The notes beneath the pieces were generated by a model. It saw only the letters and a list, made by a program, of their open reading frames with translations. It did no database searches and was not told the origin of the DNA. Below are positions 24,296 through 38,460 of a stretch of 64,000 nucleotides of DNA, piece by piece. The DNA is taken from the NCBI GenBank assembly GCA_900258555.1, contig LT984855.1:457134-521133 (forward strand), in the 5' to 3' direction. Numbering within the stretch: the stretch's first letter is position 1; each line of letters opens with the position of its first letter. The position numbers were made by a program, and so were the translations under genes. The stretch is from an uncultured Desulfobacterium sp. Its GTDB lineage: Bacteria > Desulfobacterota > DSM-4660 > Desulfatiglandales > Desulfatiglandaceae.

Positions 24296-25531
24296 ATGAA
24301 AGCAGCATATAAGATTCTTGTTGTAGATGATGAAATCGGCATTTGCCGAAATGTGGAAAAGATTCTTTCCAAAAATAATTATCAAGTGACGCATGCACAA
24401 AGCGCCAAAGTGGCATTGGAAAAAATGGCTAAGGAGTCTTATTCCCTTCTTATTTCTGATATTATTATGCCTGAGGTGGATGGCATTGAGTTACTGAAAC
24501 GTACTAAGGAGCAATGGCCTTCCACCAAGGTGGTAATGATGACCGCTTATGCCTCCACAGACACAGCAATGAAGGCGATCAGGCTGGGTGCAGAAGATTA
24601 TGTTCCAAAACCATTTACGCCTGACGGACTGCGCGATAAGGTTGAAAAGGTCCTATCTCCCAAGACCATTCTATTTCCCATGAAGAGAGAAAGAACAGAT
24701 CTCCTTGACGGCAAGGTGGATATAGACCTCCCCTTTGACAGGAAAGAACTACTGAAATACGTGGGCAAGGAATACCTCAAGACGCTGGGCCCATCAGATA
24801 TGCCCAGCATCGGTAGGACCCTCCCCAAGAAGAAGGAAATCTATTGCCCATTCGGACAGAGGATTTGTGATGTCTTTGCAAAACTCGGCCATACATGCAA
24901 GGCGGGGACTGAAAAGGAGGAATGCCCTCAAAAAAAGGCCATGGAAAGAAAAGCCCAGAGGGATTATGCAGGCTTTGATTCCACAAAACTGATCGGGATT
25001 GACATGCCTTTCAATTATGCAGAGGTAATTTCAGTTGCTGGCCCTGAATTTGTGAAAAACCTTAACAGAGACGGCTTCTCATTTATACCCTATCATGAAC
25101 TCAAGAAAAATGTTGCTCAGATGATGGCGAACAATAGGGGCGAATTACTCACCACACCGGAGTTCAGCAGGCACATACTCGTGATCGATGACGAAGTGGC
25201 AGTCAATAATAATATCCGCAAGATCCTCTCCAAGAAAGGCTATCATGTTGATCAGGCGATCACAAAGGCTGAGGCCATTAGAAAGATTGACGAGAGTTCT
25301 TACAAACTTATCCTTCTTGACCTTCGTATCCCAGGAGTAAGAGATCTTGAACTTCTTAAAATTATTCGAGATAAAAGGCCTGAGACAAAAGTTATTATCG
25401 TCACGGGCTATGCAAATATCGAAACCGCGGTTGAGACCGCTAAGCTTGGCGCCATTGATTTTCTGTCAAAACCATTTACACCAAGAGATATTCGTATGGC
25501 TGCGGAAAACGCCTTAAAAATGGCGGCCTAA
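24296..25531 (+). CDS. Tandem-receiver response regulator with Cys-containing middle domain
   Basis: 411 residues. Receiver 1 (1-120) has phospho-acceptor D55 and K105; receiver 2 (about 292-410) has D342 and a matching KPF lysine. The middle contains two related pieces (VDIDLPFDRKELLKYVGKEY at 141 and IGIDMPFNYAEVISVAGPEF at 234). Between them are four cysteines (C184, C191, C201, C210), possibly a metal or Fe-S site. There is no DNA-binding or enzymatic output domain, so it probably works through phosphotransfer or protein contacts. The sigma-54 promoter in front is very good. The hdr/flx locus starts 200 bases downstream after a terminator, so it may regulate that locus; this is inference. 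Confidence 0.88.
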   Translation: MKAAYKILVVDDEIGICRNVEKILSKNNYQVTHAQSAKVALEKMAKESYSLLISDIIMPEVDGIELLKRTKEQWPSTKVVMMTAYASTDTAMKAIRLGAEDYVPKPFTPDGLRDKVEKVLSPKTILFPMKRERTDLLDGKVDIDLPFDRKELLKYVGKEYLKTLGPSDMPSIGRTLPKKKEIYCPFGQRICDVFAKLGHTCKAGTEKEECPQKKAMERKAQRDYAGFDSTKLIGIDMPFNYAEVISVAGPEFVKNLNRDGFSFIPYHELKKNVAQMMANNRGELLTTPEFSRHILVIDDEVAVNNNIRKILSKKGYHVDQAITKAEAIRKIDESSYKLILLDLRIPGVRDLELLKIIRDKRPETKVIIVTGYANIETAVETAKLGAIDFLSKPFTPRDIRMAAENALKMAA

Positions 25532-25737: not shown

Positions 25738-26124
25738 ATGTCTGGTAAGATTAATGGTTCGGTCTTGGTGGTGGGTGGTGGCATAGCTGGCATGCAGTCT
25801 GCACTTGATTTGGCGAATTCCGGCTATTATGTCTACCTGCTTGAAGAGGGTCCTTCAATTGGTGGAGTGATGTCCCAACTGGACAAGACCTTTCCCACCA
25901 ACGATTGTGCAATGTGAATTATCTCTCCGAAACTGGTCGAGGTCGGCCGGCACTTAAACATTGAGATAATAACATATGCAGATCTGGAATCTGTCGAAGG
26001 GACAAAGGGAGATTTTAAGGTAAAAATCAAAAAACGCGCCCGCAGCATTAACATGGAACTCTGTACAGGTTGCGGGAGCTGCGTTGAGAACTGTCCTGTT
26101 AGAAATGAGGCTCAAATCTCATAA
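25738..26124 (+). CDS. Stand-alone HdrA N-terminal piece, selenoprotein (TGA = Sec60)
   Basis: Read through the TGA at 25915-25917, this encodes 128 residues. They contain an FAD-binding loop [14 protein letters not shown] at 13-26, the HdrA motif [18 protein letters not shown] with Sec60, and one 4Fe-4S ferredoxin motif [11 protein letters not shown] at 109-119. It then stops, matching just the first 125 residues or so of the full HdrA at 32027. Complete HdrA proteins are several times longer. The downstream NuoG-HdrA fusion lacks this very segment, so this is best read as the split-off N-terminus of that protein. A SECIS-like hairpin (25933-25950) has an AGGUC loop. AGGAG lies 7 bases before the ATG. 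Confidence 0.9.
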
Positions 26125-26136
26125 CAAGAGATAGCA

Positions 26137-26619
26137 ATGAAAAATGATATTGAAATTGACTGGCAAAAAATAGATAATATAATTTCAAAATATAATGCTA
26201 ATCATGAAGCGCTGCTGATGATAATGCATGATATAGGTGAGATTTACAATTATGTACCGCAACAGGTAATTCCCGTGCTGGTTGACAGATTGGGCGTAAA
26301 GGAGAGCCTGATTTACAGCGTTGCAACATTTTACAAAACTGTAAGTCTTACCCCCAGAGGGAAGTATATCATCAGCGTCTGCACGGGCACTGCTTGCCAT
26401 GTCAGGGGTGCGGAAAAAATTATGGGCGCATTGGAGGAAAAGCTCAATATTATTGAAGGTCAGACTACGGAGGACAGGTTGTTCACGCTCGATTCCGTCC
26501 GCTGTATCGGCTGTTGCGCCGCGGGGCCTGTTGTTAATGTCAACAAGGAAACACATGGCGGTCTTGATCGTTCAAGCGTACTTGAAATTATAAACGAGTA
26601 TAAACACCGTGCTTCATAA
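26137..26619 (+). CDS. NuoE-like [2Fe-2S] subunit of NADH-linked complex
   Basis: 160 residues with a thioredoxin-like 2Fe-2S fold. The ligands are CTGTAC (CX4C) and RCIGCCAAGP (CX3C), and a helical N-terminus is present as in NuoE, HndA and HydC. It passes electrons between the flavin subunit and other centres of NAD-linked complexes. It starts 12 bases after the split HdrA piece and 32 bases before the NuoF-like gene. It acts in the cytoplasm; no membrane NADH dehydrogenase genes are in the window, so a soluble complex is expected. Confidence 0.93.
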   Translation: MKNDIEIDWQKIDNIISKYNANHEALLMIMHDIGEIYNYVPQQVIPVLVDRLGVKESLIYSVATFYKTVSLTPRGKYIISVCTGTACHVRGAEKIMGALEEKLNIIEGQTTEDRLFTLDSVRCIGCCAAGPVVNVNKETHGGLDRSSVLEIINEYKHRAS

Positions 26620-26651
26620 CGGCGTGGAGGATAGGAGATTTTACACGGAAA

Positions 26652-28505
26652 ATGTCCAGATTAGAAAACAGAGAGGCCCTCAAAAAATTCAGAGAGGCGA
26701 TTAAAGCCGGGCGTCAGCAGAGCAAGAAAAAATTGATTTCACTTTGCGCCGGCTCCGGATGCGGTGCCTATGGAACGGCAAAGGTGCATCAGGCCCTGAC
26801 CGCGGAGTTGTCTAGGCAGAACCTGCAGGATCAGGTTGAAATAAAACTTTCTTGTTGTCATGGCTTCTGTCAAAAGGGGCCTATCATGGTTATTCATCCT
26901 GAACGGATATTTTATCCTCAGGTAAAAGAAGAGCATATTCCGGAAGTAGTAGAAAAAACCATTAAAAATGGTAAGCTTGCTGACTCCCTTATATTCAAGG
27001 ATCCCACTACCAAAGAAAAGATAGTTCACGAACAGGATATACCATTTTACAAACTCCAGCAAAGGGTGATCTTCGGCAACAACAGTCTGATTGATCCTAC
27101 AAACATGGAGGATTATCTGGCTGTCGGAGGTTATACCGCCATGGAAAAGGCCCTTTTTGACATGGGGTCGGAGCAGATCATTGATCAAATCAAGGCATCA
27201 GGCCTCCGCGGCCGTGGAGGCGGCGGATTCCCCACAGGAATCAAGTGGGAGACATGCCGCCGTCATGAGGGTAGAAGGTATGTCATTTGCAACGCAGACG
27301 AAGGGGACCCCGGCGCATACATGGATCGTATCCTTCTGGAAGGGAACCCCCATTGTGTTATTGAGGGGATGATAATAGGGGCCATAGCCATTCAGTCCCA
27401 CGATGGCTATGTTTACGTGCGGCATGAGTATCCACTTGCAGTTACTAACCTTGAAATCGCATTAAAAAGCGCAAGGGAAAAGGGACTTCTGGGCAATAAT
27501 ATCCTTGGCTCAGGTTTTGATTTTGATATCCAGATCAGCCGCGGCGGCGGGGCATTTGTATGCGGTGAATCCACTGCACTGATGGCCTCCCTTGAGGGAA
27601 AACCGGGAAGACCGAGGGCAAAATATGTACACACCGTTGCTAAAGGATTCCGTGATGACCCCTCAAATCTCAACAACGTTGAGACATGGGCCAATGTCCC
27701 TTTAGTTATCAATAAAGGCGCTGATTGGTATTCTCAAATAGGCACAAAGACAAGCAAAGGCACAAAGATATTTTCTCTTGTCGGAAAGGTTAATAACACC
27801 GGTTTGGTTGAAGTCCCCATGGGCACAAGCCTGCGTAAAATCATCTTTGATATCGGGGGCGGCATTCCCAAGAACAAAAAATTCAAGGCGGTCCAGACCG
27901 GAGGCCCTTCAGGGGGTTGTATCCCCGAACAGTTCCTAGATGTGGGTGTTGACTATGATGAACTGCTGAAACTGGGCTCGATCATGGGCTCCGGCGGCAT
28001 GATCGTTATGGATCAGGATACCTGCATGGTGGATGTGGCCAGGTACTTTATAGAATTTTTGAAGGAAGAATCATGCGGGCAATGTAATCCCTGCCGTGAA
28101 GGCATAAAACAGATGCTGGAAATCTTGACTGACATCTGTCAAGGCCACGGAAAGGAGGGGGATATTGAGTTGCTCGAGGAACTGGGCGGCATGATCCAGA
28201 AATTTGCCCTGTGTGGTCTCGGCACGTCTGCGCCAAACCCGGTTCTAACCACAATCCTGTATTTCCGTGAAGAATACGAGGCCCATATCAGGGACAAAAA
28301 ATGCCCGGCAGGGGTCTGTAAAAACCTTTTCCATTATGATATTGCCGAAGATCTGTGCACTGGTTGCGGGTTGTGCGCCAAGAAATGCCCCAAGAATGCC
28401 ATTACCGGTGAAAAAAAGAAGCCCCACAAGTTAAACCAGGACGAATGTATAAAATGCGGAATCTGTTACGAGGGGTGTAAATTCGGGGCTATAGTGATAA
28501 AATAA
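26652..28505 (+). CDS. NuoF-like NADH-binding flavoprotein subunit with ferredoxin tail
   Basis: 617 residues. An N-terminal thioredoxin-like 2Fe-2S domain (CAGSGC, CCHGFC) occupies residues about 25-105. Next comes the FMN/NADH module with GRGGGGFPTGIKW, CNADEGDPGAYMDR and the second glycine-rich region GGPSGGCIP. The NuoF 4Fe-4S motif ESCGQCNPCREG follows, and then a C-terminal two-cluster ferredoxin (CTGCGLCAKKCP, CIKCGICYEGC). This is the architecture of HndC/HydB-type subunits in soluble bifurcating hydrogenases and NADH complexes. It is the expected NAD(H) site for the fusion HdrA encoded next. Confidence 0.95.
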   Translation: MSRLENREALKKFREAIKAGRQQSKKKLISLCAGSGCGAYGTAKVHQALTAELSRQNLQDQVEIKLSCCHGFCQKGPIMVIHPERIFYPQVKEEHIPEVVEKTIKNGKLADSLIFKDPTTKEKIVHEQDIPFYKLQQRVIFGNNSLIDPTNMEDYLAVGGYTAMEKALFDMGSEQIIDQIKASGLRGRGGGGFPTGIKWETCRRHEGRRYVICNADEGDPGAYMDRILLEGNPHCVIEGMIIGAIAIQSHDGYVYVRHEYPLAVTNLEIALKSAREKGLLGNNILGSGFDFDIQISRGGGAFVCGESTALMASLEGKPGRPRAKYVHTVAKGFRDDPSNLNNVETWANVPLVINKGADWYSQIGTKTSKGTKIFSLVGKVNNTGLVEVPMGTSLRKIIFDIGGGIPKNKKFKAVQTGGPSGGCIPEQFLDVGVDYDELLKLGSIMGSGGMIVMDQDTCMVDVARYFIEFLKEESCGQCNPCREGIKQMLEILTDICQGHGKEGDIELLEELGGMIQKFALCGLGTSAPNPVLTTILYFREEYEAHIRDKKCPAGVCKNLFHYDIAEDLCTGCGLCAKKCPKNAITGEKKKPHKLNQDECIKCGICYEGCKFGAIVIK

Positions 28506-28612
28506 TCGTAACTGCTCAGGAGCCAGGAGTCAGAATTCAGAATGGGCACTACCCTCCTAAGTAGGAAAAATGAGCTATGTAATGATCTACAAGCTGATAA
28601 GGTTTACAATAA

Positions 28613-31600
28613 ATGGTTACTTTTAAACTTAATGGCGTAGAAGTTGAGGGGGAAGAAGGACAATATATCCTTCAGGTCGCCCAGAAATATGGTGTTGAAA
28701 TCCCGACCCTGTGCCATCACAAGGCCCTTGAGCCTGCCGGGATGTGCAGACTGTGTACTGTTGAAGTCTTTGATGGCCGCAGGACCCGCTTTGTCACTTC
28801 ATGTAACTATCCTATATGGAAAGGTATGGAGGTATTTACGGACACAGAGGCGGTCCGCAGCGGGCGCATGCTTATATTAGAAATGCTTTTGGCAAGGTGC
28901 CCTGATGTAGCGATAATTAAAGACCTGGCAAAGGCCTATGGCATAGATGAGCCGCGTTTTAAAAAGGAAAATGATGATTGTATCCTCTGCGGCCTGTGTG
29001 TACGTATGTGCGAAAAAATGGGCAGAAGCGCCATCAGTCTGACCGGTCGCGGCGTTGACATGGTTGTGGACACCCCTTTTCATCTACAGACCGATGTATG
29101 TATGGCATGCGGCGCATGCGCCTCTGTCTGTCCCACAGGGCACATAAAGCTTGAGGATATCACAGGCCGTAAAATCAAGCAGATTCCATCTGAATATGAT
29201 ATGGGACTCAAAGGCAGAAAGCCCATTTATGTGCCTTATGCACAGGCCATCCCCAACACCCCGGTCATTGACAGGACCAAATGTGTGCACTTTAAGACCG
29301 GTGGGTGCAAGGTGTGCACAAATTTTTGCGGAGTAAACGCCATTGATCACTCCCAGAAAGATGAAGTGATCGAGTTGACAGTAGGCTCCATAATACTCGC
29401 CCCAGGTTTTAGGCCTTTTGATCCCACGGAATTCGCCAGCTATCACTACTCAAGCCACCCGAATGTGGTCACCTCGATGGAATTTGAAAGGATACTCTCC
29501 GCTTCCGGGCCCACTATGGGGCATTTAGTCAGGCCATCGGACAAGAAAGAGCCCAAAAAGATTGCATGGCTTCAGTGTGTAGGTTCAAGGGATCTGAATA
29601 AGTGCGATCACGGCTATTGTTCTTCGGTCTGCTGTATGTATGCGATAAAGGAGGCGGTGATCGCCAAAGAGCATGCAGACAAGAGCCTGGATTGTGCCAT
29701 CTTCTACATGGACATCAGGACCCACGGCAAAGACTTTGAACGATACTATGACGATGCGCGGGGAAAGCACGGAGTCCGTTTTATAAATACCCGTGTCCCG
29801 ACCGTTGAGACGATCAAGGGCTCAGATGACATCTTGATAAGATACACCCTGCAAAACGGCCAGCCCAACGAAGAGACTTTTGATATGGTCGTCCTTTCAA
29901 TCGGGCTTGAGACCTCGCCGAAGGTGGTGGAGATGGCGAGAAATATGGGCATTGAACTCACTGAAGGTCAGTTTGCAAATACATCGTCATTTCGTCCTGT
30001 TGCAACCGCGCAGGACGGCATTTATGTCTGCGGGGCCTTTGCAGGGCCAAAGGATATCCCCCAGTCAGTAATAGAGGCAAGTTCTGCTGCGGCAGAGGCC
30101 GGCGCACTTTTGACCAGCGCGAGAAATACCCTTACCAAGGAGAAGGATATCCCTGAGGAACGCAATATTATAGGTGAAAGGCCGCGCGTTGGCGTATTTG
30201 TCTGTCAGTGCGGCATCAATATCGGCGGCCTTGTAGATGTCCCATCAGTCAGGGATTACGCAGCAACCCTGCCCTATGTGGAATATGCCAGTGATAATCT
30301 CTACACATGTTCTCAGGACTCCCAGGAGAACATGGCAAAGATTATCAAAGAGAAAAACCTAAACAGGGTGGTAGTCGCAGCCTGCACGCCAAAGACTCAT
30401 GAGCCCCTGTTTCAGGAGACCCTTGTTGATGCGGGCCTGAATAAATATGTATTCGAGATGACCAACATCAGGAACCAGTGCTCCTGGGTCCATAAGGACA
30501 ACCCTCCAATGGCCACTGCAAAGGCCAAGGACCTTGTCCGCATGGCAGTAGCAAAGGCCGCCCTGATGGAACCACTCAGAGAAAGCGAGCTGGAGGTGGA
30601 TCAGAGGGCTCTTGTTGTGGGCGCTGGCATCTCGGGCCTGGTTGCAGCCAAGACACTTTCATCACAGGGCTACCATGTCTCTCTGGTCGAGCAGTCGGCC
30701 TCTCTGGGCGGAAATGCCCTCTCGCTTTATAAGACCTGGAAGGGCGAACATGTCCAAGGGCATCTGGCAGAACTGATAAACTCGGTGGAATCAGATGGCA
30801 ACATTGACATATACAAAAACACAAGACTTGGCAACGTAGAAGGCTTTGTCGGAAACTTCAAGACGACCTTGATCGCTGATGGGGCGGATAAGACAATCGA
30901 GCATGGGATCGCCGTTATTGCAACAGGAGGCAAAGAACACACTCCCGATGAGTATCTTTACGGAAAAGATCCGAGGGTTGTTACACACTTGGAACTGGAT
31001 AAGATGTTCCTTGCAGAAGACCAGAAACTCAAGGAGATAAAAAACGCGGTCTTTATCCAGTGCGTGGGCTCTAGGGAGCCTGAAAGGCCTTATTGTTCCA
31101 GGGTCTGTTGCACCCATTCCATTGAAAGCGCCATCCAGCTAAAAGAACTCAATCCGGATATCACTGTGTACATACTTTTCAGAGATATCAGGAGCTATGG
31201 GGAACGTGAATACCTTTACAGGGAAGCCAGGGCCAAGGGTGTTATATTTATCCGCTATGAGCTGGATCAAAAGCCTGAGGTGACAGGAGGCAAAGACGGC
31301 CTTGAGATAAAGGTAATCAACCAGGTGATCGGCAGACCTGTAATCCTAAAGGCGGATCTCGTGGCCCTTGCCTCTGCCATAGTATCTCCAAGGGATGAGA
31401 AGTTGGCCCAGTTCTTCAAGATCCCGATGAATGAAGACGGCTTTTTCATTGAGGCCCATGCAAAACTGGGGCCCTCTGAATTTGCAACAGACGGCGTATT
31501 TCTATGCGGCATGGCCCATTATCCCAAGCCCATTGATGAATCTGTTGCGCAGGCACAGGCAGCGGTTTCCAGGGCTGTTACACTGCTTGCCAGGCAGAAG

Positions 31601-31846
31601 GTCAAGGTAAGCGGGACAGTGGCCCAGGTAAATCCAGTGATGTGCAGCAGTTGCGGCGTCTGCGTTGATATATGCCCGTATTCCGCCCCATCGTTCATCA
31701 AGCAGGGGCCGTTTACAGGCAGGGCTGAGGTTAATCCTGTTTTGTGTAAAGGTTGCGGGCTGTGCGTGGCCTCATGCAGGTCGGGTGCATTAAATCTTAA
31801 GGGGTTTGGCACCGATCAGATTATGGCGATGATAAATGAAATTTAG
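28613..31846 (+). CDS. NuoG-type N-terminus fused to HdrA body
   Basis: 1077 residues. Residues 1-195 are NuoG/HndD-like: a 2Fe-2S domain (C34, C45, C48, C64) and two 4Fe-4S motifs (C123-C133, C163-C173). From about residue 198 (GRKPIYVPYAQ) it aligns with the full HdrA from its residue 136 onward: CxxC cluster segments, [13 protein letters not shown], a second FAD loop VVGAGISGLVAAK near 663, and a C-terminal two-cluster ferredoxin. The first HdrA segment with the Sec motif is missing and is found as a separate gene at 25738. With the NuoE/F-like subunits it should form a soluble flavin-based electron-bifurcating NADH complex. A weak AAGG precedes the ATG; no close homologue is named. Confidence 0.92.
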   Translation: MVTFKLNGVEVEGEEGQYILQVAQKYGVEIPTLCHHKALEPAGMCRLCTVEVFDGRRTRFVTSCNYPIWKGMEVFTDTEAVRSGRMLILEMLLARCPDVAIIKDLAKAYGIDEPRFKKENDDCILCGLCVRMCEKMGRSAISLTGRGVDMVVDTPFHLQTDVCMACGACASVCPTGHIKLEDITGRKIKQIPSEYDMGLKGRKPIYVPYAQAIPNTPVIDRTKCVHFKTGGCKVCTNFCGVNAIDHSQKDEVIELTVGSIILAPGFRPFDPTEFASYHYSSHPNVVTSMEFERILSASGPTMGHLVRPSDKKEPKKIAWLQCVGSRDLNKCDHGYCSSVCCMYAIKEAVIAKEHADKSLDCAIFYMDIRTHGKDFERYYDDARGKHGVRFINTRVPTVETIKGSDDILIRYTLQNGQPNEETFDMVVLSIGLETSPKVVEMARNMGIELTEGQFANTSSFRPVATAQDGIYVCGAFAGPKDIPQSVIEASSAAAEAGALLTSARNTLTKEKDIPEERNIIGERPRVGVFVCQCGINIGGLVDVPSVRDYAATLPYVEYASDNLYTCSQDSQENMAKIIKEKNLNRVVVAACTPKTHEPLFQETLVDAGLNKYVFEMTNIRNQCSWVHKDNPPMATAKAKDLVRMAVAKAALMEPLRESELEVDQRALVVGAGISGLVAAKTLSSQGYHVSLVEQSASLGGNALSLYKTWKGEHVQGHLAELINSVESDGNIDIYKNTRLGNVEGFVGNFKTTLIADGADKTIEHGIAVIATGGKEHTPDEYLYGKDPRVVTHLELDKMFLAEDQKLKEIKNAVFIQCVGSREPERPYCSRVCCTHSIESAIQLKELNPDITVYILFRDIRSYGEREYLYREARAKGVIFIRYELDQKPEVTGGKDGLEIKVINQVIGRPVILKADLVALASAIVSPRDEKLAQFFKIPMNEDGFFIEAHAKLGPSEFATDGVFLCGMAHYPKPIDESVAQAQAAVSRAVTLLARQKVKVSGTVAQVNPVMCSSCGVCVDICPYSAPSFIKQGPFTGRAEVNPVLCKGCGLCVASCRSGALNLKGFGTDQIMAMINEI

Positions 31847-31917
31847 TTGTTATCAAGACATAACATTTGTCTGAATAATATATTGTCTCCTTTAGGCTTC
31901 TAAGATGAAAATATTAC

Positions 31918-31947
31918 TTGACAACAAAGGTCCTTTTTTCATATGTA
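31918..31947 (+). promoter_or_regulatory. Candidate internal sigma-70 promoter before full-length hdrA
   Basis: TTGACA at 31918-31923 with TATGTA at 31942-31947 (18-base spacer, -10 weak). It may allow the hdrA-flx half to be transcribed apart from the nuo-like half. Confidence 0.4.
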
Positions 31948-32026
31948 GGCGCTTGCGCTTGTGTTTTTTTTCACATCTGTTTTAATTTTGAAACATCATG
32001 GATCATTGTTCATGAGGAGCCAATAA

Positions 32027-35000
32027 ATGACAGAAACATCCAAAAATGTCCGTGGTTCAGTAGTGGTCGTAGGCGGGGGAATTGCCGGTATGCAATCGTC
32101 CCTTGATCTGGCCGATGCGGGCTATTATGTATATTTGGTTGAAAAGTCACCCTCAATCGGTGGAGTAATGGCACAGTTGGACAAGACATTCCCCACCAAT
32201 GACTGCGCAATGTGAATTATCTCTCCCAAGCTGGTCGAGGTCGGCCGGCATCTGAATATAGAGCTTCTTACCCTTGCGGAAGTCACAGCAATAAACGGTG
32301 AGGCAGGTAACTTCAGCGTGGAAGTGATGAAACACCCCCGCTTTATAGATATGTCAAAGTGTATTGCCTGCGGTACATGTGCCGAAAAGTGTCCCAAAAA
32401 GGTGGATGACCCATTTAACGAAAACATGGGCAAAAGAAAGGCCATTTATGTAGACTATGCCCAAGCGGTTCCCTTAAAATATTCGATCAACAAGGACGAA
32501 TGCCTGTATTTTAAAAAGGGCAAATGCAGGGCCTGCGAGAAGTTCTGCCCTACAGGTGCAATCAATTACGAAGACAAGGAAGAAAAAGTGGTGCTTCAGG
32601 CGGGAGCGGTAATCCTGTCCACAGGCTTTAAGACATTTAACCCCAGCACATTCCCCACTTATCAGTACGCATCTTTTGAGAATGTGGTCACCAGCCTGGA
32701 GTATGAACGAATATTAAGCGCCACTGGTCCATATCAGGGCCACCTGGTGCGTCCCTCAGATTACAAAGAGCCCCAGAAGATCGGGTGGCTTCAATGCGTG
32801 GGATCACGGGATATCAACCGTTGCGACCATCCTTACTGCTCCTCTGTCTGCTGCATGTACGCGGTAAAAGAGGCAATGATCTCCAAAGAGCATGCAGACT
32901 ATGACCTGGACGCCGCGATATTTTTTATGGACATGCGTACCTACGGCAAGGACTTTGAAAAGTACTATGAACGCGCCAAGGAACATGGCATAAGATTTGT
33001 CCGCGCCAGACTCCACACCTTGGAGGAAGACCCTGAAACCAAGGACATTAAGGTCCGCTATGCAGATGAAAAGGGTGAAATCCAGGTAGAGACCTTTGAC
33101 ATGATGGTGCTTTCTGTCGGCATGGAGACACCGGCGGAATTGGTGGAGACGGCAAAAACCCTGGGTATAGGGCTAGATACGGATAACTTCGCCGCAACCG
33201 GGGTATTCACCCCTGTTGAGACCTCCAGAAAGGGCATTTATGTGTGCGGCGCGTTTTCCGGGCCAAAGGATATCCCCCAGTCCGTTACCGAGGCAAGCTC
33301 TGCCGCTGCAGGTGCGGGGCTGCTCCTGAGCAGTGCAAGAAACACCCTTACCAAGGAAAAGCATATCCCCGAGGAGCGAAACATTATAGGTGAAAGGCCG
33401 CGAATCGGTATATTTATATGCCAGTGCGGCATCAATATCGGCGGCATTGTAAATGTCCCGTCCGTCCGAGATTATGCAGCAACTCTTCCCTATGTGGAAT
33501 ATGCAACCGACAGTCTCTACACCTGTTCCCAGGACTCTCAGGAGACAATGGCCAAGATCATCAATGAAAAAGGCCTAAACAGGGTGGTTGTTGCTGCCTG
33601 CACCCCCAAGACACATGAGCCGCTGTTTCAGGAGACATTGGTTGATGCTGGTCTCAATAAATATGTGTTTGAGATGACCAACATCAGGAACCAGTGTTCC
33701 TGGGTGCACAAGGACAGCCCCGAGATGGCGACGGCAAAGGCCAAGGATCTTGTCCGCATGGCTGCGGCCAAGGTCTCCCTGATGGAACCGCTCAAGGAGA
33801 CAGAGCTTGAGGTTGATCAGAGGGCGCTTGTTGTAGGCGGCGGCATAGCCGGCATGGTTGCGGCCAAGACCCTTTCCTCACAGGGCTATCAGGTATATCT
33901 GGTCGAGCAGACGGGCTCTCTTGGAGGAAACGCCCTATTGCTTTCCAAGACCTGGAGGGGGGACGATGTTCAAAGTCGTCTTTCCGAACTGATCAGTTCT
34001 GTAGAATCTGACAAAAATATCGAAATATACAAAGATACAAAGTTGACCAATGTAGAGGGCTTTGTAGGTAATTTCAAGACAACCTTGAATGACCAAAACG
34101 TCATTGAACACGGGATTGCGGTCATTGCAACAGGTGGTAAAGAATATATACCCAATGAATACCTCTACGGGAAAGATCCGAGGGTGGTCACCCATCTGGA
34201 ATTGGACAAGATGTTTCTTGCCGGTGACCAGAGATTAAAAGATGTAAAAAATGCGGTGTTCATACAGTGTGTGGGCTCCAGGGTACCGGAAAGACCCTAT
34301 TGTTCAAGGGTCTGCTGCACGCATTCGGTAAAGTCTGCGATAAATCTCAAGGAGAATAACCCCGATACCAACGTGTACGTCCTCTACAGGGATATCCGCA
34401 CCTACGGTCAAAGAGAGGAGCTTTACAAAGAGGCGAGAAACCGCGGCGTGATCTTCATCAGATACAGCCTTGAAGAAAGGCCCGTGGTAGAAAATATTAA
34501 TGGCCGGATTTCTGTAAGGATAAAGGATCACATATTACAGCAGGGTATAGCTATTGACCCGGATCTGGTGGTATTGGCCTCCGGCATTATCCCTCAGGAC
34601 AACGAGGCCCTCGCGCAGATGTTCAAACTGTCTGTAAATGAAGATGGCTTTTTTATGGAGGCCCATGCAAAGCTTAGGCCCGTTGACTTTGCGACAGAAG
34701 GGGTATTTCTTGCAGGCATGGCCCATTATCCTAAGCCTATAGAAGAGAGTATTGCTCAGGCGCAGGCAGCGGTGTCGAGGGCGGTGACACTGCTTGCAAG
34801 AAAGAAGGTGATGGTAAGCGGCACTGTCGCCCAGGCAAACCCTGTGATGTGCAGCAGTTGCAGCGTATGTATTGATATATGCCCATATTCTGCTCCTTCA
34901 TTCATCAAACAGGGCCCGTTCACAGGAAAGGCGGAGATCAATCCGGCGCTTTGCAAGGGTTGTGGGCTATGTGTCGCCTCTTGCCGGTCCGGCGCATTGA

Positions 35001-35053
35001 ATCTAAAGGGTTTTGGAACTGACCAGATTATGGCCATGATAAATGAGATATAA
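32027..35053 (+). CDS. hdrA: Full-length HdrA-like flavoprotein, selenoprotein (TGA = Sec63)
   Basis: 1008 residues when the TGA at 32213-32215 is read as Sec; the frame continues unbroken on both sides. It has a first FAD loop [14 protein letters not shown], the motif [18 protein letters not shown], and a ferredoxin motif C112-C122. A GIYVCGAF segment and HdrA-specific [11 protein letters not shown] follow, then a second FAD loop [13 protein letters not shown] and a C-terminal two-cluster ferredoxin ([22 protein letters not shown]). HdrA is the flavin-bifurcating subunit of heterodisulfide-reductase-type complexes. The SECIS-like hairpin at 32231-32248 is the same as in the short gene. It lies directly upstream of MvhD/FlxD, its usual partner. 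The body is highly similar to the preceding fusion gene. Confidence 0.93.
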
Positions 35054-35077
35054 CTGAGATATAATTGAGAGGATGTA

Positions 35078-35509
35078 ATGAGTGACTGGGAACCAAAAAT
35101 AACCACTTTTTTGTGCCACTGGTGCAGTTATGGAGCTGCGGATCTGGCAGGGGTTAGCCGTTTACAATACCCGCATAATTTCAGGGTGATCAGGGTCCCT
35201 TGTTCAGGCCGTGTCAGTCCAAAATTTATCCTGGCGGCATTCAGGCATGGCGCCGACGGGGTATGGGTATCCGGGTGACACCCGGGCGACTGTCATTACC
35301 TGGAAGGTAATTACTACGCAAGAAGGAAGTTTGCCTTGTTAAAAGGGCTGCTGGAGCATATAGGCATTGAACCGGGCAGACTAAATTTTTCATGGATATC
35401 ATCGGCTGAGGCGACCAAGTTTGTAGATGTTGCGCAGCAAGTGGCTGCAAGTGTAAAGGCGCTTGGCCCTGCAAGATATCTAATAAAGAAGAGAGCTGAG
35501 GTAGCATAA
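35078..35509 (+). CDS. MvhD/FlxD [2Fe-2S] electron-transfer subunit, selenoprotein (TGA = Sec67)
   Basis: 143 residues through the TGA at 35276-35278. MvhD signatures: [42 protein letters not shown], then [18 protein letters not shown]. The Sec replaces the cysteine of the GCHPGDCHY motif, as known for VhuD/MvhD selenoproteins. A perfect 6-bp hairpin with a UGGAA loop starts 17 bases after the TGA (35295-35311), a good bacterial SECIS. The protein links HdrA to its electron-donor module, here FlxABC. Its stop shares a base with the next ATG, so translation is coupled. Confidence 0.94.
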
Positions 35510-36459
35510 TGATCGAATATACAGCGATCATCAGGGATACGGCGAAGAAGCTGTTGAAAGACGGAAAGGTTGATGTATTTATCGGCTATAAAAAAGGGAC
35601 CGTTCCGATGATGAACGAGCCTGTTGTCATATCTGATCCTGAGAAGGTGGACACCTTGCACTGGGACAGTCTGTGCGGACTGAACCTGTGTAACTATCTG
35701 ACCAAGAGGAAAGACAAAATTGGTATCATAGCCAATGGGTGCAACTCCAGGAACATTGTGACACATATTTTAGAAAACCAGATTAGCCGTGAGCAGTTAT
35801 ACATCGTTGGAATCCCATGCACTGGTGTAATTGACCACAGGGCCGTGTTACGCGCTGTAGGGAATAAAGAGGTGCTGGATGTCCAGGAGCAAGGGGACAA
35901 GTTTACAGTAAGCGGAAACGGATTTAGCGAGACATTTGACAAGGCCAAATTTCTACGCACCAATTGTGCTGTCTGTACACACAGAAACCCTGTGATATAC
36001 GATGAAATGGTGGCAAGCCCGGTAAAGGAGCAGGAAGGGGTTGACCCATTTGAGGATGTAAAGAAGATCGAGGCGATGGACCCGGAGAAGAAATGGGGGT
36101 TCTTCACCAAGATGATCGAGAGGTGCCTCAGATGCTATGCGTGCAGGAATTCATGCCCGCTTTGTTATTGCCCCACCTGTTTTGTTGATGAGTCCAAACC
36201 CCAGTGGGTGGGAAAGAGTATTGATCCGACCGACACAATGACCTTTCATATTATGAGGGCATACCATTGTGCTGGCCGTTGCACCGACTGCGGCGCATGT
36301 GAACGAGTGTGCCCTGTCGGGATCCCGATGAGGCAGTTTACAAAGAAGCTCAACAAGGATGCACTTGAATATTTTTCCTGGGAGGCGGGGCTTAATCCGG
36401 ATGCAAGACCTCCTTTAGATGTATACAAACCGGATGACTATAACGATTTTGTTAAGTAA
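35509..36459 (+). CDS. FlxC-like iron-sulfur subunit
   Basis: 316 residues. The N-terminal two thirds resemble the FrhB/FdhB-type domain (DSLCGLNLCNYL, GIIANGCNSRN, TNCAVCTHRNPVIYDE). The C-terminal part carries two 4Fe-4S motifs, CLRCYACRNSCP and CTDCGACERVCPVGIP. This matches the second ferredoxin-type subunit of Flx/Flox NADH modules in sulfate reducers. It carries electrons between FlxB and the MvhD-like protein. Soluble and cytoplasmic, with no transmembrane segments. Confidence 0.85.
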   Translation: MIEYTAIIRDTAKKLLKDGKVDVFIGYKKGTVPMMNEPVVISDPEKVDTLHWDSLCGLNLCNYLTKRKDKIGIIANGCNSRNIVTHILENQISREQLYIVGIPCTGVIDHRAVLRAVGNKEVLDVQEQGDKFTVSGNGFSETFDKAKFLRTNCAVCTHRNPVIYDEMVASPVKEQEGVDPFEDVKKIEAMDPEKKWGFFTKMIERCLRCYACRNSCPLCYCPTCFVDESKPQWVGKSIDPTDTMTFHIMRAYHCAGRCTDCGACERVCPVGIPMRQFTKKLNKDALEYFSWEAGLNPDARPPLDVYKPDDYNDFVK

Positions 36460-36559
36460 GAAGGCTGAAGGCTGGTTGTAGAAGGTCAACCCATTCAGCT
36501 TACAGCCAATGAGTAACAGCTAATCGAAAGGTTTTCTGTTTAATACAAGGTGCTTTTAC

Positions 36560-37597
36560 ATGACTAATAAGATATTCACCAAGGAAGAATGGACAAAGGC
36601 TCTTCAAGGCCTCAGTGACAGTTACAAGGTGTTTGTACCGGTAAAAGACGGGGACTTCCATACGTTCAAGCCTATGAATGCAACCAAGGCCCCTGATTTT
36701 GATTTTCAGAATACCAGGCTTTCTGCCAGGTCGCTGGTATATCCCCAAGCTGAAAGGATGTTTGAATATTCTTTGGATGAAAATGACCCTGAGGCCAATA
36801 TTATCAAAGAAACGCCCAAGGACTATTCCCCTCAAGCGATTGTGGGCATAAGACCATGTGACGCACATGGCTTTAAAATTGTTAAGCCCAATTTCGATAA
36901 CAAGGAATACCGCGATCCATGGTGGATACAGCACTTTGAATCCACAGTGCTCGTTGGGCTTGGTTGCAATCAGCCGTGTTCCACGTGCTTTTGCGCCTCT
37001 GTGGGTGGAGGCCCGTTTAATAAGGATGTCTTAGATGTCCTGATTTACGACCTTGGCGCTAATTTTATGGTTAGCGGCCTGACAGAAAAGGGTGAGGCTT
37101 TCCTTAGCAAGGCACAAGGCGGCAAAGCCGCCGATGATGCGGCTGTTAAGCAGGCAGAGGCACTTGCAACCGAGGCAGCAAAGAAGGTTAAGGCCGATGT
37201 CCCCACAGACAAATTAAAAGATAAAGTGATTAATGATCTGTTTGCTGCGCCCTTCTGGCAGGATGTGGGGTTTGCATGCCTTAACTGCGGCACATGCACC
37301 TATCTTTGCCCCACCTGCTGGTGCTTTGATATACAGGATGAGGTGTTGGGAAAGCAGGGAGACCGCATCAGAAACTGGGATTCATGCATGTTTCCGCTTT
37401 TTACCCTCCATGGCTCAGGGCACAACCCAAGGGATCAAAAATTTCAGCGTGTGCGTCAGCGCTTTATGCACAAGCTCAAATACTACGTTGATAAGTATCA
37501 GGGCGGCGTGCAGTGTTCAGGCTGCGGCCGTTGCGTAAGATATTGTCCTGTAAATATAGATATTCGGCAAGTGGCCGAGTTGATGAATAATTATTAA
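36560..37597 (+). CDS. FlxB-like iron-sulfur subunit (AsrA / sulfhydrogenase beta family)
   Basis: 345 residues. It has the AsrA/HydB-type features KVFVPVKDGDFHTFKPM, AIVGIRPCDAHGFKI and GLGCNQPCSTCFCASVGGGPF. The C-terminal ferredoxin motifs are CLNCGTCTYLCPTC and CSGCGRCVRYCPVNID. It is the electron-wire subunit paired with a FlxA/AsrB flavin reductase. An Ala/Lys-rich helical insert lies around residues 175-215. The gap of 100 bases before the gene holds a local repeat of GAAGGCTG; the flxA-like gene follows within 6 bases. Confidence 0.87.
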   Translation: MTNKIFTKEEWTKALQGLSDSYKVFVPVKDGDFHTFKPMNATKAPDFDFQNTRLSARSLVYPQAERMFEYSLDENDPEANIIKETPKDYSPQAIVGIRPCDAHGFKIVKPNFDNKEYRDPWWIQHFESTVLVGLGCNQPCSTCFCASVGGGPFNKDVLDVLIYDLGANFMVSGLTEKGEAFLSKAQGGKAADDAAVKQAEALATEAAKKVKADVPTDKLKDKVINDLFAAPFWQDVGFACLNCGTCTYLCPTCWCFDIQDEVLGKQGDRIRNWDSCMFPLFTLHGSGHNPRDQKFQRVRQRFMHKLKYYVDKYQGGVQCSGCGRCVRYCPVNIDIRQVAELMNNY

Positions 37598-37602
37598 GAA
37601 GA

Positions 37603-38460
37603 ATGCGGGGTGTTCCATTGCAAAATCCATATCTACCCTATCCGGTTCGTATAGATAAGATTACGACAGAGACTACAGACAAAAATCTGAAGACATTCAG
37701 GTTCGTGTTTCTTAATCCCGAGGATGAAAAAAAGTTTGCCTATACCCCGGGCCAGTTTGCCGAGCTGTCTGTTCCTGGCAAGGGCGAGATACCGATAGGC
37801 ATTGCGTCTTCTCCCACTGAAAAGGGCTTTGTAGCCTTCACGGTAAACAAGGTCGGCCTTGTGACCAATTACATGCACAACATGAAAGAGGGAGAGATAA
37901 TGGGTATCAGGGGGCCGCTGGGCAACTGGTATCCCTGGGAGGAGATGGAAGGTAAAAACATTGTGATCGTAGGCGGCGGTTTTGCATTCACAACGCTAAG
38001 ATCCAGCATTGTCTACATGATACAGCCAGAGAACAGAGCAAGGTTCAAGGATATCTCGGTTGTATATGGCGCAAGGAACCCGGGACTGTTGCTGTATAGA
38101 GACGAGCTAGCCGAATGGGAAAAAAGAGACGACATCAACATGCACATAACAGTGGACGGTACTGATGACCCTGACTGGAAGTACAACGTAGGGTTTGTGC
38201 CTGCCATCACTGAAAAGAAGATCACGAGTGCCGATAATGCCATAGCCATTGTGTGCGGCCCTCCGATCATGATCAAATTCACCCAGCCGGTGCTTGAAAA
38301 GCTGGGCTTTCCGCCCGAGCGGATCATCCTCTCCCTTGAGATGAGGATGAAATGCGGCATCGGTATCTGCGGCAGGTGTAATATCGGAGATAAATATGTC
38401 TGCAAGGACGGGCCGGTATTTTCCCTCGCAAAGTTAAAACAGATGCCGGGAGAGTACTAA
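37603..38460 (+). CDS. FlxA-like FAD/NAD(H)-binding subunit
   Basis: Up to 285 residues. It is a ferredoxin-NADP-reductase fold: FAD region (YTPGQFAELSVPG), NAD-binding region (NIVIVGGGFAFTTLRSS, VYGARNPGLLLYRDEL) and CGPPIMI. The C-terminal 2Fe-2S ligands are MKCGIGICGRCNIGDKYVC. The AsrB/HydG family takes electrons from NAD(P)H. With FlxB, FlxC and the MvhD-like protein it forms a NADH-oxidising module for the selenocysteine HdrA. The ATG at 37603 has a poor ribosome site; TTG at 37618 after GGGGTG (giving MQNPYLPYPVRI) is an equally good start. Confidence 0.9.
   Translation: MRGVPLQNPYLPYPVRIDKITTETTDKNLKTFRFVFLNPEDEKKFAYTPGQFAELSVPGKGEIPIGIASSPTEKGFVAFTVNKVGLVTNYMHNMKEGEIMGIRGPLGNWYPWEEMEGKNIVIVGGGFAFTTLRSSIVYMIQPENRARFKDISVVYGARNPGLLLYRDELAEWEKRDDINMHITVDGTDDPDWKYNVGFVPAITEKKITSADNAIAIVCGPPIMIKFTQPVLEKLGFPPERIILSLEMRMKCGIGICGRCNIGDKYVCKDGPVFSLAKLKQMPGEY

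What the first reader, a model, noticed from the sequence alone, without database searches (positions are those of the whole stretch)
25738..31846. One HdrA appears split: its selenocysteine N-terminus is a separate gene and its body is fused to a NuoG-type N-terminus
The first gene ends after about 128 residues, just past the first ferredoxin motif. The 1077-residue gene downstream has a NuoG-like 1-195 region and then matches full HdrA only from its residue about 136. The two parts together make one complete HdrA. NuoE- and NuoF-like genes sit between them. This suggests NADH input grafted onto an HdrA bifurcation core, with the Sec segment supplied in trans. I know of HdrA-Flx and Hnd/HydABC complexes, but not of this layout.
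Basis: partly seen in the sequence, partly recalled or inferred. Interest (0 to 1): 0.88.

Follow-up and report, generated by a model that had tools for sequence, protein, structure and literature searches.

The report
HdrA split around an NADH module
In this anaerobic bacterium and many relatives, the gene for the protein HdrA is broken in two around genes for a predicted NADH-handling module, and the two pieces, one carrying a predicted selenocysteine, likely reassemble into a single enzyme that would couple NADH and ferredoxin to other reactions.

Summary
The 128-aa gene (25738-26124, UGA codon 60) is HdrA residues 1-123. The 1077-aa gene (28613-31846) is a BfuA/NuoG-type N-terminus followed by HdrA from about residue 130. 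BfuC (NuoE) and BfuB (NuoF) genes lie between. In 47 loci from two genome surveys, HdrA-N is free upstream of NuoE in 28, fused in frame to NuoE in 14, unlinked but still next to NuoE in 2, and cut off by contig ends in 3. So the ground plan is hdrA-N(::)nuoE - nuoF - nuoG::hdrA-C: a nuoEFG block inside hdrA. HdrA-N is under purifying selection (median dN/dS 0.045). Its divergence tracks the HdrA body, not the NuoE/NuoF between them. In 37 of 37 Sec copies, six codons after the UGA never vary and can form a hairpin (SECIS-like). In an AlphaFold comparison the body's junction folds confidently only with HdrA-N in the chain. Best reading: HdrA-N completes the first FAD site in trans, giving an HdrA-fused Bfu enzyme with exchangeable partners (Flx, hydrogenase, MetVF). 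Assembly and bifurcation are inferred; one further locus (L050) lacks HdrA-N. Not found in the papers searched.

The parts
25738..26124 (+). hdrA-N: first 128 residues of HdrA (FAD-binding GxGxxG, predicted Sec60 at the canonical Cys, first 4Fe-4S motif), separate gene
   Evidence: free ORF or NuoE fusion upstream in 42 of 47 surveyed loci, unlinked in 2 more, cut in 3
25915..25917 (+). in-frame UGA, predicted selenocysteine codon
   Evidence: UGA there in 20 of the 21 copies (window included), Cys in one; SelB encoded twice in the genome
25933..25950 (+). hairpin in six invariant codons, predicted SECIS element
   Evidence: identical in 37 of 37 Sec copies, varied in the 6 Cys copies recovered; alone, the window's fold is no more stable than shuffles (z -0.40)
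26137..26619 (+). NuoE/HydC-type subunit (BfuC)
   Evidence: PF01257 156.6 bits
26652..28505 (+). NuoF/HydB-type subunit (BfuB) with N-terminal 2Fe-2S and C-terminal 2x4Fe-4S
   Evidence: near full-length matches to HydB-type chains 9mqx_B, 7q4v_B, 7t2r_B
28613..31846 (+). BfuA/NuoG-N (residues 1 to about 186) fused to the HdrA body lacking HdrA-N (from residue about 193)
32027..35053 (+). complete single-chain HdrA with one predicted Sec, tandem to the fusion; not seen at this place in the 29 other fusion loci
35078..35509 (+). MvhD/FlxD-type subunit with one predicted Sec
   Evidence: PF02662 181.7 bits
35509..36459 (+). FlxC-like Fe-S protein (name by resemblance and recall)
   Evidence: follows MvhD in 13 of 29 other fusion loci
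36560..37597 (+). FlxB-like protein (AsrA/sulfhydrogenase beta type)
37603..38460 (+). FlxA-like FAD/NAD(P) oxidoreductase (AsrB/sulfhydrogenase gamma type)
24296..25531 (+). protein with two receiver domains just upstream; possible regulator
   Evidence: a relative upstream in 10 of 29 other fusion loci

Best explanation
The gene at 25738 encodes the first 128 residues of HdrA, with a predicted selenocysteine, the gene at 28613 encodes the rest of HdrA fused behind a NuoG-type (BfuA) N-terminus, and the two products likely dock to each other in one complex with the NuoE and NuoF subunits, completing a split FAD site in trans. Shown: the two pieces are complementary, conserved, under purifying selection, covary, and HdrA-N is joined to NuoE in many relatives. 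Inferred: HdrA-N carries the GxGxxG half of the first FAD domain and the Sec beside it, the fusion protein carries the other half, and NuoE anchors HdrA-N next to the NuoG-HdrA junction. NADH (with ferredoxin) would react at the FMN/Fe-S centre of NuoF-NuoE (BfuBC). Electrons would pass through the NuoG-type 2Fe-2S and 4Fe-4S clusters directly into the split HdrA FAD. From there, via the second HdrA module and MvhD, they would reach the FlxCBA pyridine-nucleotide module here, or a NiFe hydrogenase or methylene-THF reductase (MetVF) in relatives. This would make it a Type 1-like Bfu enzyme whose third-substrate domain is itself a bifurcating HdrA, most likely used to balance NADH, ferredoxin and a third redox couple.
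For: Complementary coverage of HdrA. Conserved order HdrA-N - NuoE - NuoF - NuoG::HdrA - MvhD, with FlxCBA in many. Of 47 loci (28 genomes and 19 of the 20 further junction-spanning rows), HdrA-N is free in 28 incl. the window, fused in frame to NuoE in 14, unlinked but next to NuoE in 2, contig-cut in 3. A search with one HdrA-N::NuoE protein (domains checked) gives 3714 proteins at E<=1e-45; the 120 listed all carry PF01257 plus the FAD-type PF12831. dN/dS of HdrA-N: median 0.045, max 0.134, 158 of 210 pairs with defined dS. Distances of HdrA-N follow body segment B1 (r 0.72; 0 of 2000 Mantel permutations as high; partial 0.41 given two later body segments, 1 of 2000) but not NuoE (0.05) or NuoF (0.14), 34 of 36 loci asked. 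Six invariant codons in 37 of 37 Sec copies. SelB present. AlphaFold with 24 sequences each: junction segment 122-255 of the fusion below pLDDT 50, the homologous segment of the intact HdrA P0003 (131-200) at block means 68-93. NuoF is of the bifurcating HydB type. Other third modules: NiFe hydrogenase subunits behind MvhD in L146, MetV-MetF in L136.
Against: No complex was predicted or isolated and expression was not tested. L050 (MAG scaffold, upstream partly masked) has the fusion without HdrA-N beside it, and no free HdrA-N was found in its genome. The N-body correlation is largely shared inheritance (the partial value is 0.41). The AlphaFold difference could come from the unlike domain in front or the shallow alignment; in P0003 itself the Sec stretch 49-63 is also below 50. 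The body's second HdrA module has its own GxGxxG, so some function without HdrA-N is conceivable. The hairpin alone is not unusually stable. For the NuoE fusions found a NuoG::HdrA partner in the same genome was not checked. Which couples are linked, and whether the FMN and FAD sites both bifurcate, is not shown; bifurcation is itself a proposal for most Bfu members (PMC9304861).
Confidence: 0.77

Rival explanations
1. HdrA-N is a stand-alone small redox or regulatory protein (or a remnant) that no longer joins the fusion; the fusion's first HdrA module has lost its FAD and merely wires electrons.
For: The fusion retains a second HdrA module with its own GxGxxG; L050 seems to lack HdrA-N; HdrA-N can be unlinked from the fusion.
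Against: HdrA-N and body segment B1 are the slowest-evolving HdrA-derived parts and covary; the cysteines of the first module are invariant in 24 fusions (L042 and L045 left out); when unlinked, HdrA-N stays next to NuoE, and it is fused to NuoE in 14 loci.
Confidence: 0.13
2. HdrA-N serves the neighbouring complete HdrA or other HdrA/HdrL proteins as an extra electron carrier rather than the fusion.
For: The window has a complete HdrA right behind the fusion; the genome holds many HdrAs.
Against: None of the 29 other fusion loci has a complete HdrA between the fusion and MvhD; in 21 MvhD follows directly. In trees split HdrA-N copies lie on one side of a branch.
Confidence: 0.05
3. Frameshift, misassembly or decay of an ordinary hdrA by an inserted nuoEFG block.
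For: An interrupted gene is what a single genome would look like after insertion.
Against: Same structure in dozens of genomes, with dN/dS 0.045.
Confidence: 0.01

Closest known systems
Bfu (HydABC-like) electron-bifurcating family, Schut et al. 2022 (PMC9304861, sections 4 and 5 read)
   Same: BfuB with N-terminal 2Fe-2S, FMN domain, C-terminal 2x4Fe-4S; BfuC; BfuA-type N-terminus that may be fused to a third-substrate domain (Type 1).
Bam-Bfu, class II benzoyl-CoA reductase BamB-I
   Same: Per PMC9304861: BfuABC homologues (BamI/H/G) together with an HdrA-type module, proposed to work in series.
   Different: There, as recalled and as that paper's text implies, HdrA is not fused to BfuA, in an eight-subunit tungsten enzyme; here HdrA is split and fused to BfuA, and no tungsten subunit was found among the ten proteins scanned.
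HdrL of Desulfobacterium autotrophicum (PMC2702500, passages)
   Same: HdrA with a pyridine-nucleotide module between its first ferredoxin motif and its body, followed by MvhD. Five HdrL-like genes in the own genome.
   Different: HdrL is one chain with a glutamate-synthase-like insert at P0003 residues about 156-177; here three separate Nuo-type subunits interrupt HdrA at about residues 123-130.
FlxABCD-HdrABC of Desulfovibrio (PMC10553843 passages; Ramos 2015 cited there, not read)
   Same: HdrA with MvhD/FlxD and Flx-like genes.
   Different: NuoEFG/Bfu block inside HdrA; no HdrB-type CCG domain among the ten proteins scanned.
HdrA2 with fused MvhD (PMC5296606, passages) and methanogen HdrA structures (5odc, 8rvu)
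   Same: HdrA homology and predicted fold.
   Different: Single chain; no NADH module.

Membership tests
Bfu (BfuABC) family | BfuB with FMN domain, N3-type 4Fe-4S, N-terminal 2Fe-2S thioredoxin-like and C-terminal 4Fe-4S domains | tested here: met
   PF01512, PF10589, PF01257, PF00037 in P0010; near full-length alignments with HydB-type chains
Bfu (BfuABC) family | BfuC (NuoE-type) subunit | tested here: met
   P0009 PF01257 156.6 bits; the stricter NCBIfam NuoE models stay just under their cut-offs
Bfu (BfuABC) family | BfuA with at least 2Fe-2S and 4Fe-4S domains | tested here: met
   P0002 N-terminus: PF13510, PF14697, PF12838; invariant Cys in 24 fusions
Bfu (BfuABC) family | coupled bifurcation of NAD(H) and ferredoxin | not testable with these tools
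   needs the purified enzyme
HdrA | complete FAD (thioredoxin-reductase-like) domain with Sec/Cys and inserted ferredoxin in one chain | tested here: not met
   divided between P0001 and P0002; complete only as the sum
HdrA | sequence and predicted fold homology to solved HdrA | tested here: met
   NCBIfam HdrA cut-offs are not reached by P0002 or by P0003
HdrL | glutamate-synthase/NfnB-like module in the same chain | tested here: not met
   no such module inserted in P0001 or P0002; five HdrL-like genes seen elsewhere in the genome
FlxABCD-HdrABC | Flx-type genes with MvhD beside HdrA | tested here: met
   Flx names by resemblance
FlxABCD-HdrABC | HdrB/HdrC next to HdrA | tested here: not met
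   none among the ten proteins scanned; rest of the window not scanned
Bam-Bfu | tungsten subunit BamB in the cluster | tested here: not met
   none among the ten proteins scanned; rest of the window not scanned
bacterial selenoprotein gene | in-frame UGA with a conserved hairpin just downstream and selenocysteine machinery | tested here: met
   hairpin not unusually stable alone; incorporation itself not shown; only SelB was looked for

The most novel reading that the evidence does not exclude
A whole nuoEFG-type block sits inside the hdrA gene: HdrA-N is joined to or travels with NuoE, NuoG is joined to the HdrA body, and the protein re-forms around the NADH module. This makes a double bifurcating machine, with a Bfu FMN/Fe-S site in series with a split Sec-HdrA FAD site. 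It would be found across many anaerobic phyla, with exchangeable third modules (Flx, H2, methylene-THF).
Probability: 0.45. Interest if true: 0.9.

Novelty: new variant of a known kind. Interest (0 to 1): 0.8.

Why it matters
If right, it physically joins two of the four kinds of electron bifurcation named in PMC9304861 (HdrA FAD and Bfu FMN/Fe-S), by breaking a flavoprotein domain in two around the partner module. It offers a natural test of serial bifurcation, proposed there for the Bam complex. The pieces are easy to misread: where the protein database gives names, the fusion is called heterodisulfide reductase subunit A or FAD-dependent oxidoreductase and the HdrA-N::NuoE protein NADH:ubiquinone oxidoreductase subunit E. 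Redox budgets of sulfate reducers and syntrophs that count HdrA, NuoE and NuoF apart could therefore be off. The Sec piece is also easily missed, because UGA looks like a stop at residue 60.

Tried and rejected
Assembly error or pseudogene: rejected by conservation and dN/dS. Front-end mobility: the split label is scattered on the MvhD-FlxCBA tree (11 changes for 12 rows, 41 rows in all) and needs 6 changes on the body tree, but an AU test does not reject one clade for the split bodies (p 0.417). Within the split group HdrA-N follows the body and not NuoE/NuoF. I favour an old tandem of split and complete HdrA (as in the window) with differential loss over free hopping of the front end; this is not settled. 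Gene conversion in the window's tandem: the two proteins are 57% identical in the first module, 78% behind it and 92% in the last 77 residues, so the case is patchy. Single origin of HdrA-N: split copies lie on one side of a branch (0.985 in FastTree; 92; 79), but there are only 121 columns, and the long-branched fused copies do not form one group with them. Free versus fused: most order loci were read by eye (five were also put through the frame test); a UGA after the ferredoxin motif was taken as a stop, and in L032, L077 and L160 the frame would run on into NuoE if that UGA were read as Sec, so these could be Sec-joined. A synonymous-shuffle folding test of the hairpin was uninformative because its codons do not vary, the window's hairpin alone is ordinary, and Rfam gave no hit. 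Literature: searches found no paper; some searches listed papers, most of which I did not open. Passages (not whole texts) were seen of PMC2702500, PMC10553843, PMC5109826, PMC5296606, PMC11406978, PMC13101534, PMC13365417, PMC6037941, PMC11201294 and PMC7325909; sections 4 and 5 of PMC9304861 were read. None of what I saw describes this layout. The library is open-access only; the review of HdrA modules by Appel et al. 2021 was not opened (known only from reference lists), so the layout may be mentioned there.
Full report
The observation. The cluster at 25738-38460 reads hdrA-N, nuoE, nuoF, nuoG::hdrA, complete hdrA, mvhD and three Flx-like genes, all on the plus strand. The first gene has an ATG at 25738, an in-frame UGA at codon 60 in the motif NDCAM-U-IISPK, and stops at 26124, seven residues after [13 protein letters not shown]. 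It is HdrA by several searches: NCBIfam HdrA2 156 bits over profile positions 137-259, PDB HdrA chains, and 67% identity to the neighbouring complete HdrA P0003. The 1077-aa protein P0002 is a NuoG/HydA-type N-terminus to residue about 186. From about residue 193 it aligns with P0003 from about residue 130 to the end: 57% in the first module, 78% behind it. The two pieces together lack about six residues of HdrA.

Nature of the parts in between. NuoF-like P0010 is 617 aa, with an N-terminal thioredoxin-like 2Fe-2S domain and two C-terminal 4Fe-4S motifs. It aligns almost end to end with bifurcating HydB-type chains, and its cysteine motifs are matched in the three printed alignments. With NuoE-like P0009 and the NuoG-like part of P0002 this meets the domain definition of the Bfu family in PMC9304861 (sections 4 and 5 read). 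That paper lists many third-substrate domains, but no HdrA fused to BfuA and no split HdrA. It describes Bam-Bfu as BfuABC plus an HdrA-type module, proposed to act in series.

Conservation. A scan of GTDB contigs with P0002 kept 80 loci. With the window, 30 carry the NuoG::HdrA junction, 21 with HdrA-N upstream and 9 without. Eight of the 9 end at or within the operon; one, L050, has another gene there. In the 21, HdrA-N ends shortly after CPV, with different tails; 20 have UGA at the canonical site and one (L042) has Cys. A search of 85 genomes of the order found 28 with a match spanning the junction. The 27 other than the window were fetched: 25 show HdrA-N upstream (23 free, 2 fused to NuoE; L125 and L132 partly masked, L134 cut at its start) and 2 are contig-cut. 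A draw of 395 genomes of the phylum found 21 with such a match, in 23 rows, with only five candidates scored per genome. Of the 20 rows not already held, 19 were fetched: HdrA-N is fused in frame to NuoE in 12, free in 4, cut in 1 and not adjacent in 2. In those two genomes (G119, G457) a free UGA-bearing HdrA-N of about 134 aa lies elsewhere, directly in front of NuoE. HdrA-N and NuoE thus stay together where the operon is broken up. In L050's genome no free HdrA-N was found. In L032, L077 and L160 the codon that ends HdrA-N is UGA and the frame runs on into NuoE, so a Sec-joined HdrA-N::NuoE is not excluded there.

Fusions as evidence of contact. L136 encodes HdrA-N and NuoE in one frame. 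Used as a query, this protein finds 3714 proteins at E <= 1e-45; only the best 120 are listed, and these all have the NuoE domain PF01257 with the FAD domain PF12831. Where sources give names they include WOR-3, TA06, Cloacimonetes, Delongbacteria, Omnitrophota and a Thermoplasmata archaeon. Whether those genomes hold NuoG::HdrA too was not checked. The same database gives 2325 proteins at E <= 1e-50 to residues 1-330 of P0002 (7996 candidates scored); the 120 listed cover 99-100% of that stretch, among them a protein of the cultured Desulfatirhabdium butyrativorans. The ground plan is therefore hdrA-N(:)nuoE - nuoF - nuoG::hdrA-C.

Selection and covariation. HdrA-N has median dN/dS 0.045 and maximum 0.134 (158 of 210 pairs with defined dS, 21 loci). 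Among 34 of 36 loci asked (two lacked a part) its pairwise distances follow body segment B1 (0.72) and the other body segments (0.59-0.69), but hardly NuoE (0.05), NuoF (0.14) or NuoG (0.29), which lie between in the DNA. Given two downstream body segments, the partial value for B1 is 0.41 (1 of 2000 permutations as high), about zero for NuoE and NuoF and 0.18 for NuoG (20-21 loci give a like picture). Shared inheritance explains much of this; the extra tie to B1, the stretch just after the junction, is what contact would give.

Selenocysteine. In 37 of 37 UGA-bearing HdrA-N copies the six codons at +6 to +11 after the UGA are CTG GTC GAG GTC GGC CGG without one synonymous change, while the codons around them vary. 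They can form a seven-base-pair hairpin with a four-base loop. The six Cys copies recovered (of ten loci asked) vary there. Folded alone, the window's hairpin is no more stable than shuffles (z -0.40). The genome encodes SelB twice above the curated cut-off. Rfam has no hit. So UGA60 is likely read as Sec, and the element lies wholly inside the short gene.

Structure. AlphaFold of P0002 (24 sequences, mean pLDDT 71.7) leaves residues 122-255 below 50: its NuoG-type ferredoxins and the HdrA junction. The intact HdrA P0003, folded with the same number of sequences, gives block means of 68-93 over the homologous residues 131-200 (mean 79.3, pTM 0.83; its own Sec stretch 49-63 stays below 50). Foldseek ranks HdrA chains first for P0002. 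This fits a first module that needs HdrA-N to be settled, but it is one comparison without cofactors or partners.

Mechanism. The GxGxxG of the first FAD domain and the Sec beside it exist only in HdrA-N, while the rest of that domain, with its invariant cysteines, is in the fusion. The second HdrA module has its own GxGxxG. The likely complex has NADH and ferredoxin at the BfuBC centre, NuoG-type clusters feeding the composite HdrA site, and MvhD passing electrons to the third module. That module is FlxCBA here; an FlxC relative follows MvhD in 13 of the 29 other fusion loci. In L146 two NiFe-hydrogenase-type subunits follow, in L136 MetV- and MetF-type genes. Serial use of two bifurcating sites is the bold step; for Bam-Bfu it is the proposal of PMC9304861.

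Evolution. The N-terminal piece sorts by cluster type (split, complete, HdrL: 3 changes for 3 labels in 77 rows; 4 for 4 labels in 112 rows), whereas bodies and Flx genes mix types (14 changes in 77 rows; 15 changes in 41 rows). An AU test does not reject a single clade of split bodies. The window keeps a split and a complete HdrA in tandem, which would fit an old tandem with differential loss. HdrL (PMC2702500 passages), with five like genes in this genome, puts another pyridine-nucleotide module into a nearby place of HdrA (P0003 residues about 156-177, against about 123-130 here), so this linker region may be a favoured docking place for such modules.

Verdict. A real and conserved architecture, not found in the papers searched: a split, probably Sec-bearing HdrA joined to a Bfu-type NADH module. 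The parts are known kinds; the joining, with one half in trans, is the new element.

Noticed in passing
window 28613-31846 vs 32027-35053: The fusion and the complete HdrA behind it are 57% identical in the first module, 78% behind it and 92% in the last 77 residues, which may reflect partial gene conversion between tandem copies.
   Followed up: partly
L042 8001-11222; a stop also inside the L045 frame: In the Eth-SRB2 fusion an in-frame UGA replaces a cysteine of the CxCG motif (FVCH-UGA-GINIGG) before the second HdrA module: a possible Sec at a site that is Cys in the window. The stop in L045 was not looked at further.
   Followed up: no
L162 5967-6821, L163 6345-7196 (minus strand): Another short HdrA-N of about 135 aa with Cys instead of Sec sits next to an MvhD gene; no NuoE relative was hit in the stretch: a second kind of stand-alone HdrA-N.
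   Followed up: no
L146 8917-11220; L136 7472-9069: Behind MvhD the third module varies: NiFe-hydrogenase-type small and large subunits in L146, MetV- and MetF-type genes in L136.
   Followed up: partly
L101-L105 (own genome): Five HdrL-type genes (about 1470-1480 aa read) with a glutamate-synthase-like insert; three have UGA at the canonical Cys.
   Followed up: partly
L023 vs L084, L037 vs L054/L055, L032 vs L060: Loci with closely related MvhD-FlxCBA genes carry different front ends (split or complete HdrA), as if front ends were exchanged or one of a tandem pair were lost.
   Followed up: partly
window 24296-25531 and upstream of relatives: A protein with two receiver domains and no other Pfam domain above cut-off stands just upstream of hdrA-N; a relative lies upstream in 10 of 29 other fusion loci.
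   Followed up: no
L032 426-1463, L077 5053-6090, L160 3405-4310: Here the codon ending HdrA-N is UGA and the frame continues into NuoE, so either a stop or a second Sec joining the two.
   Followed up: no
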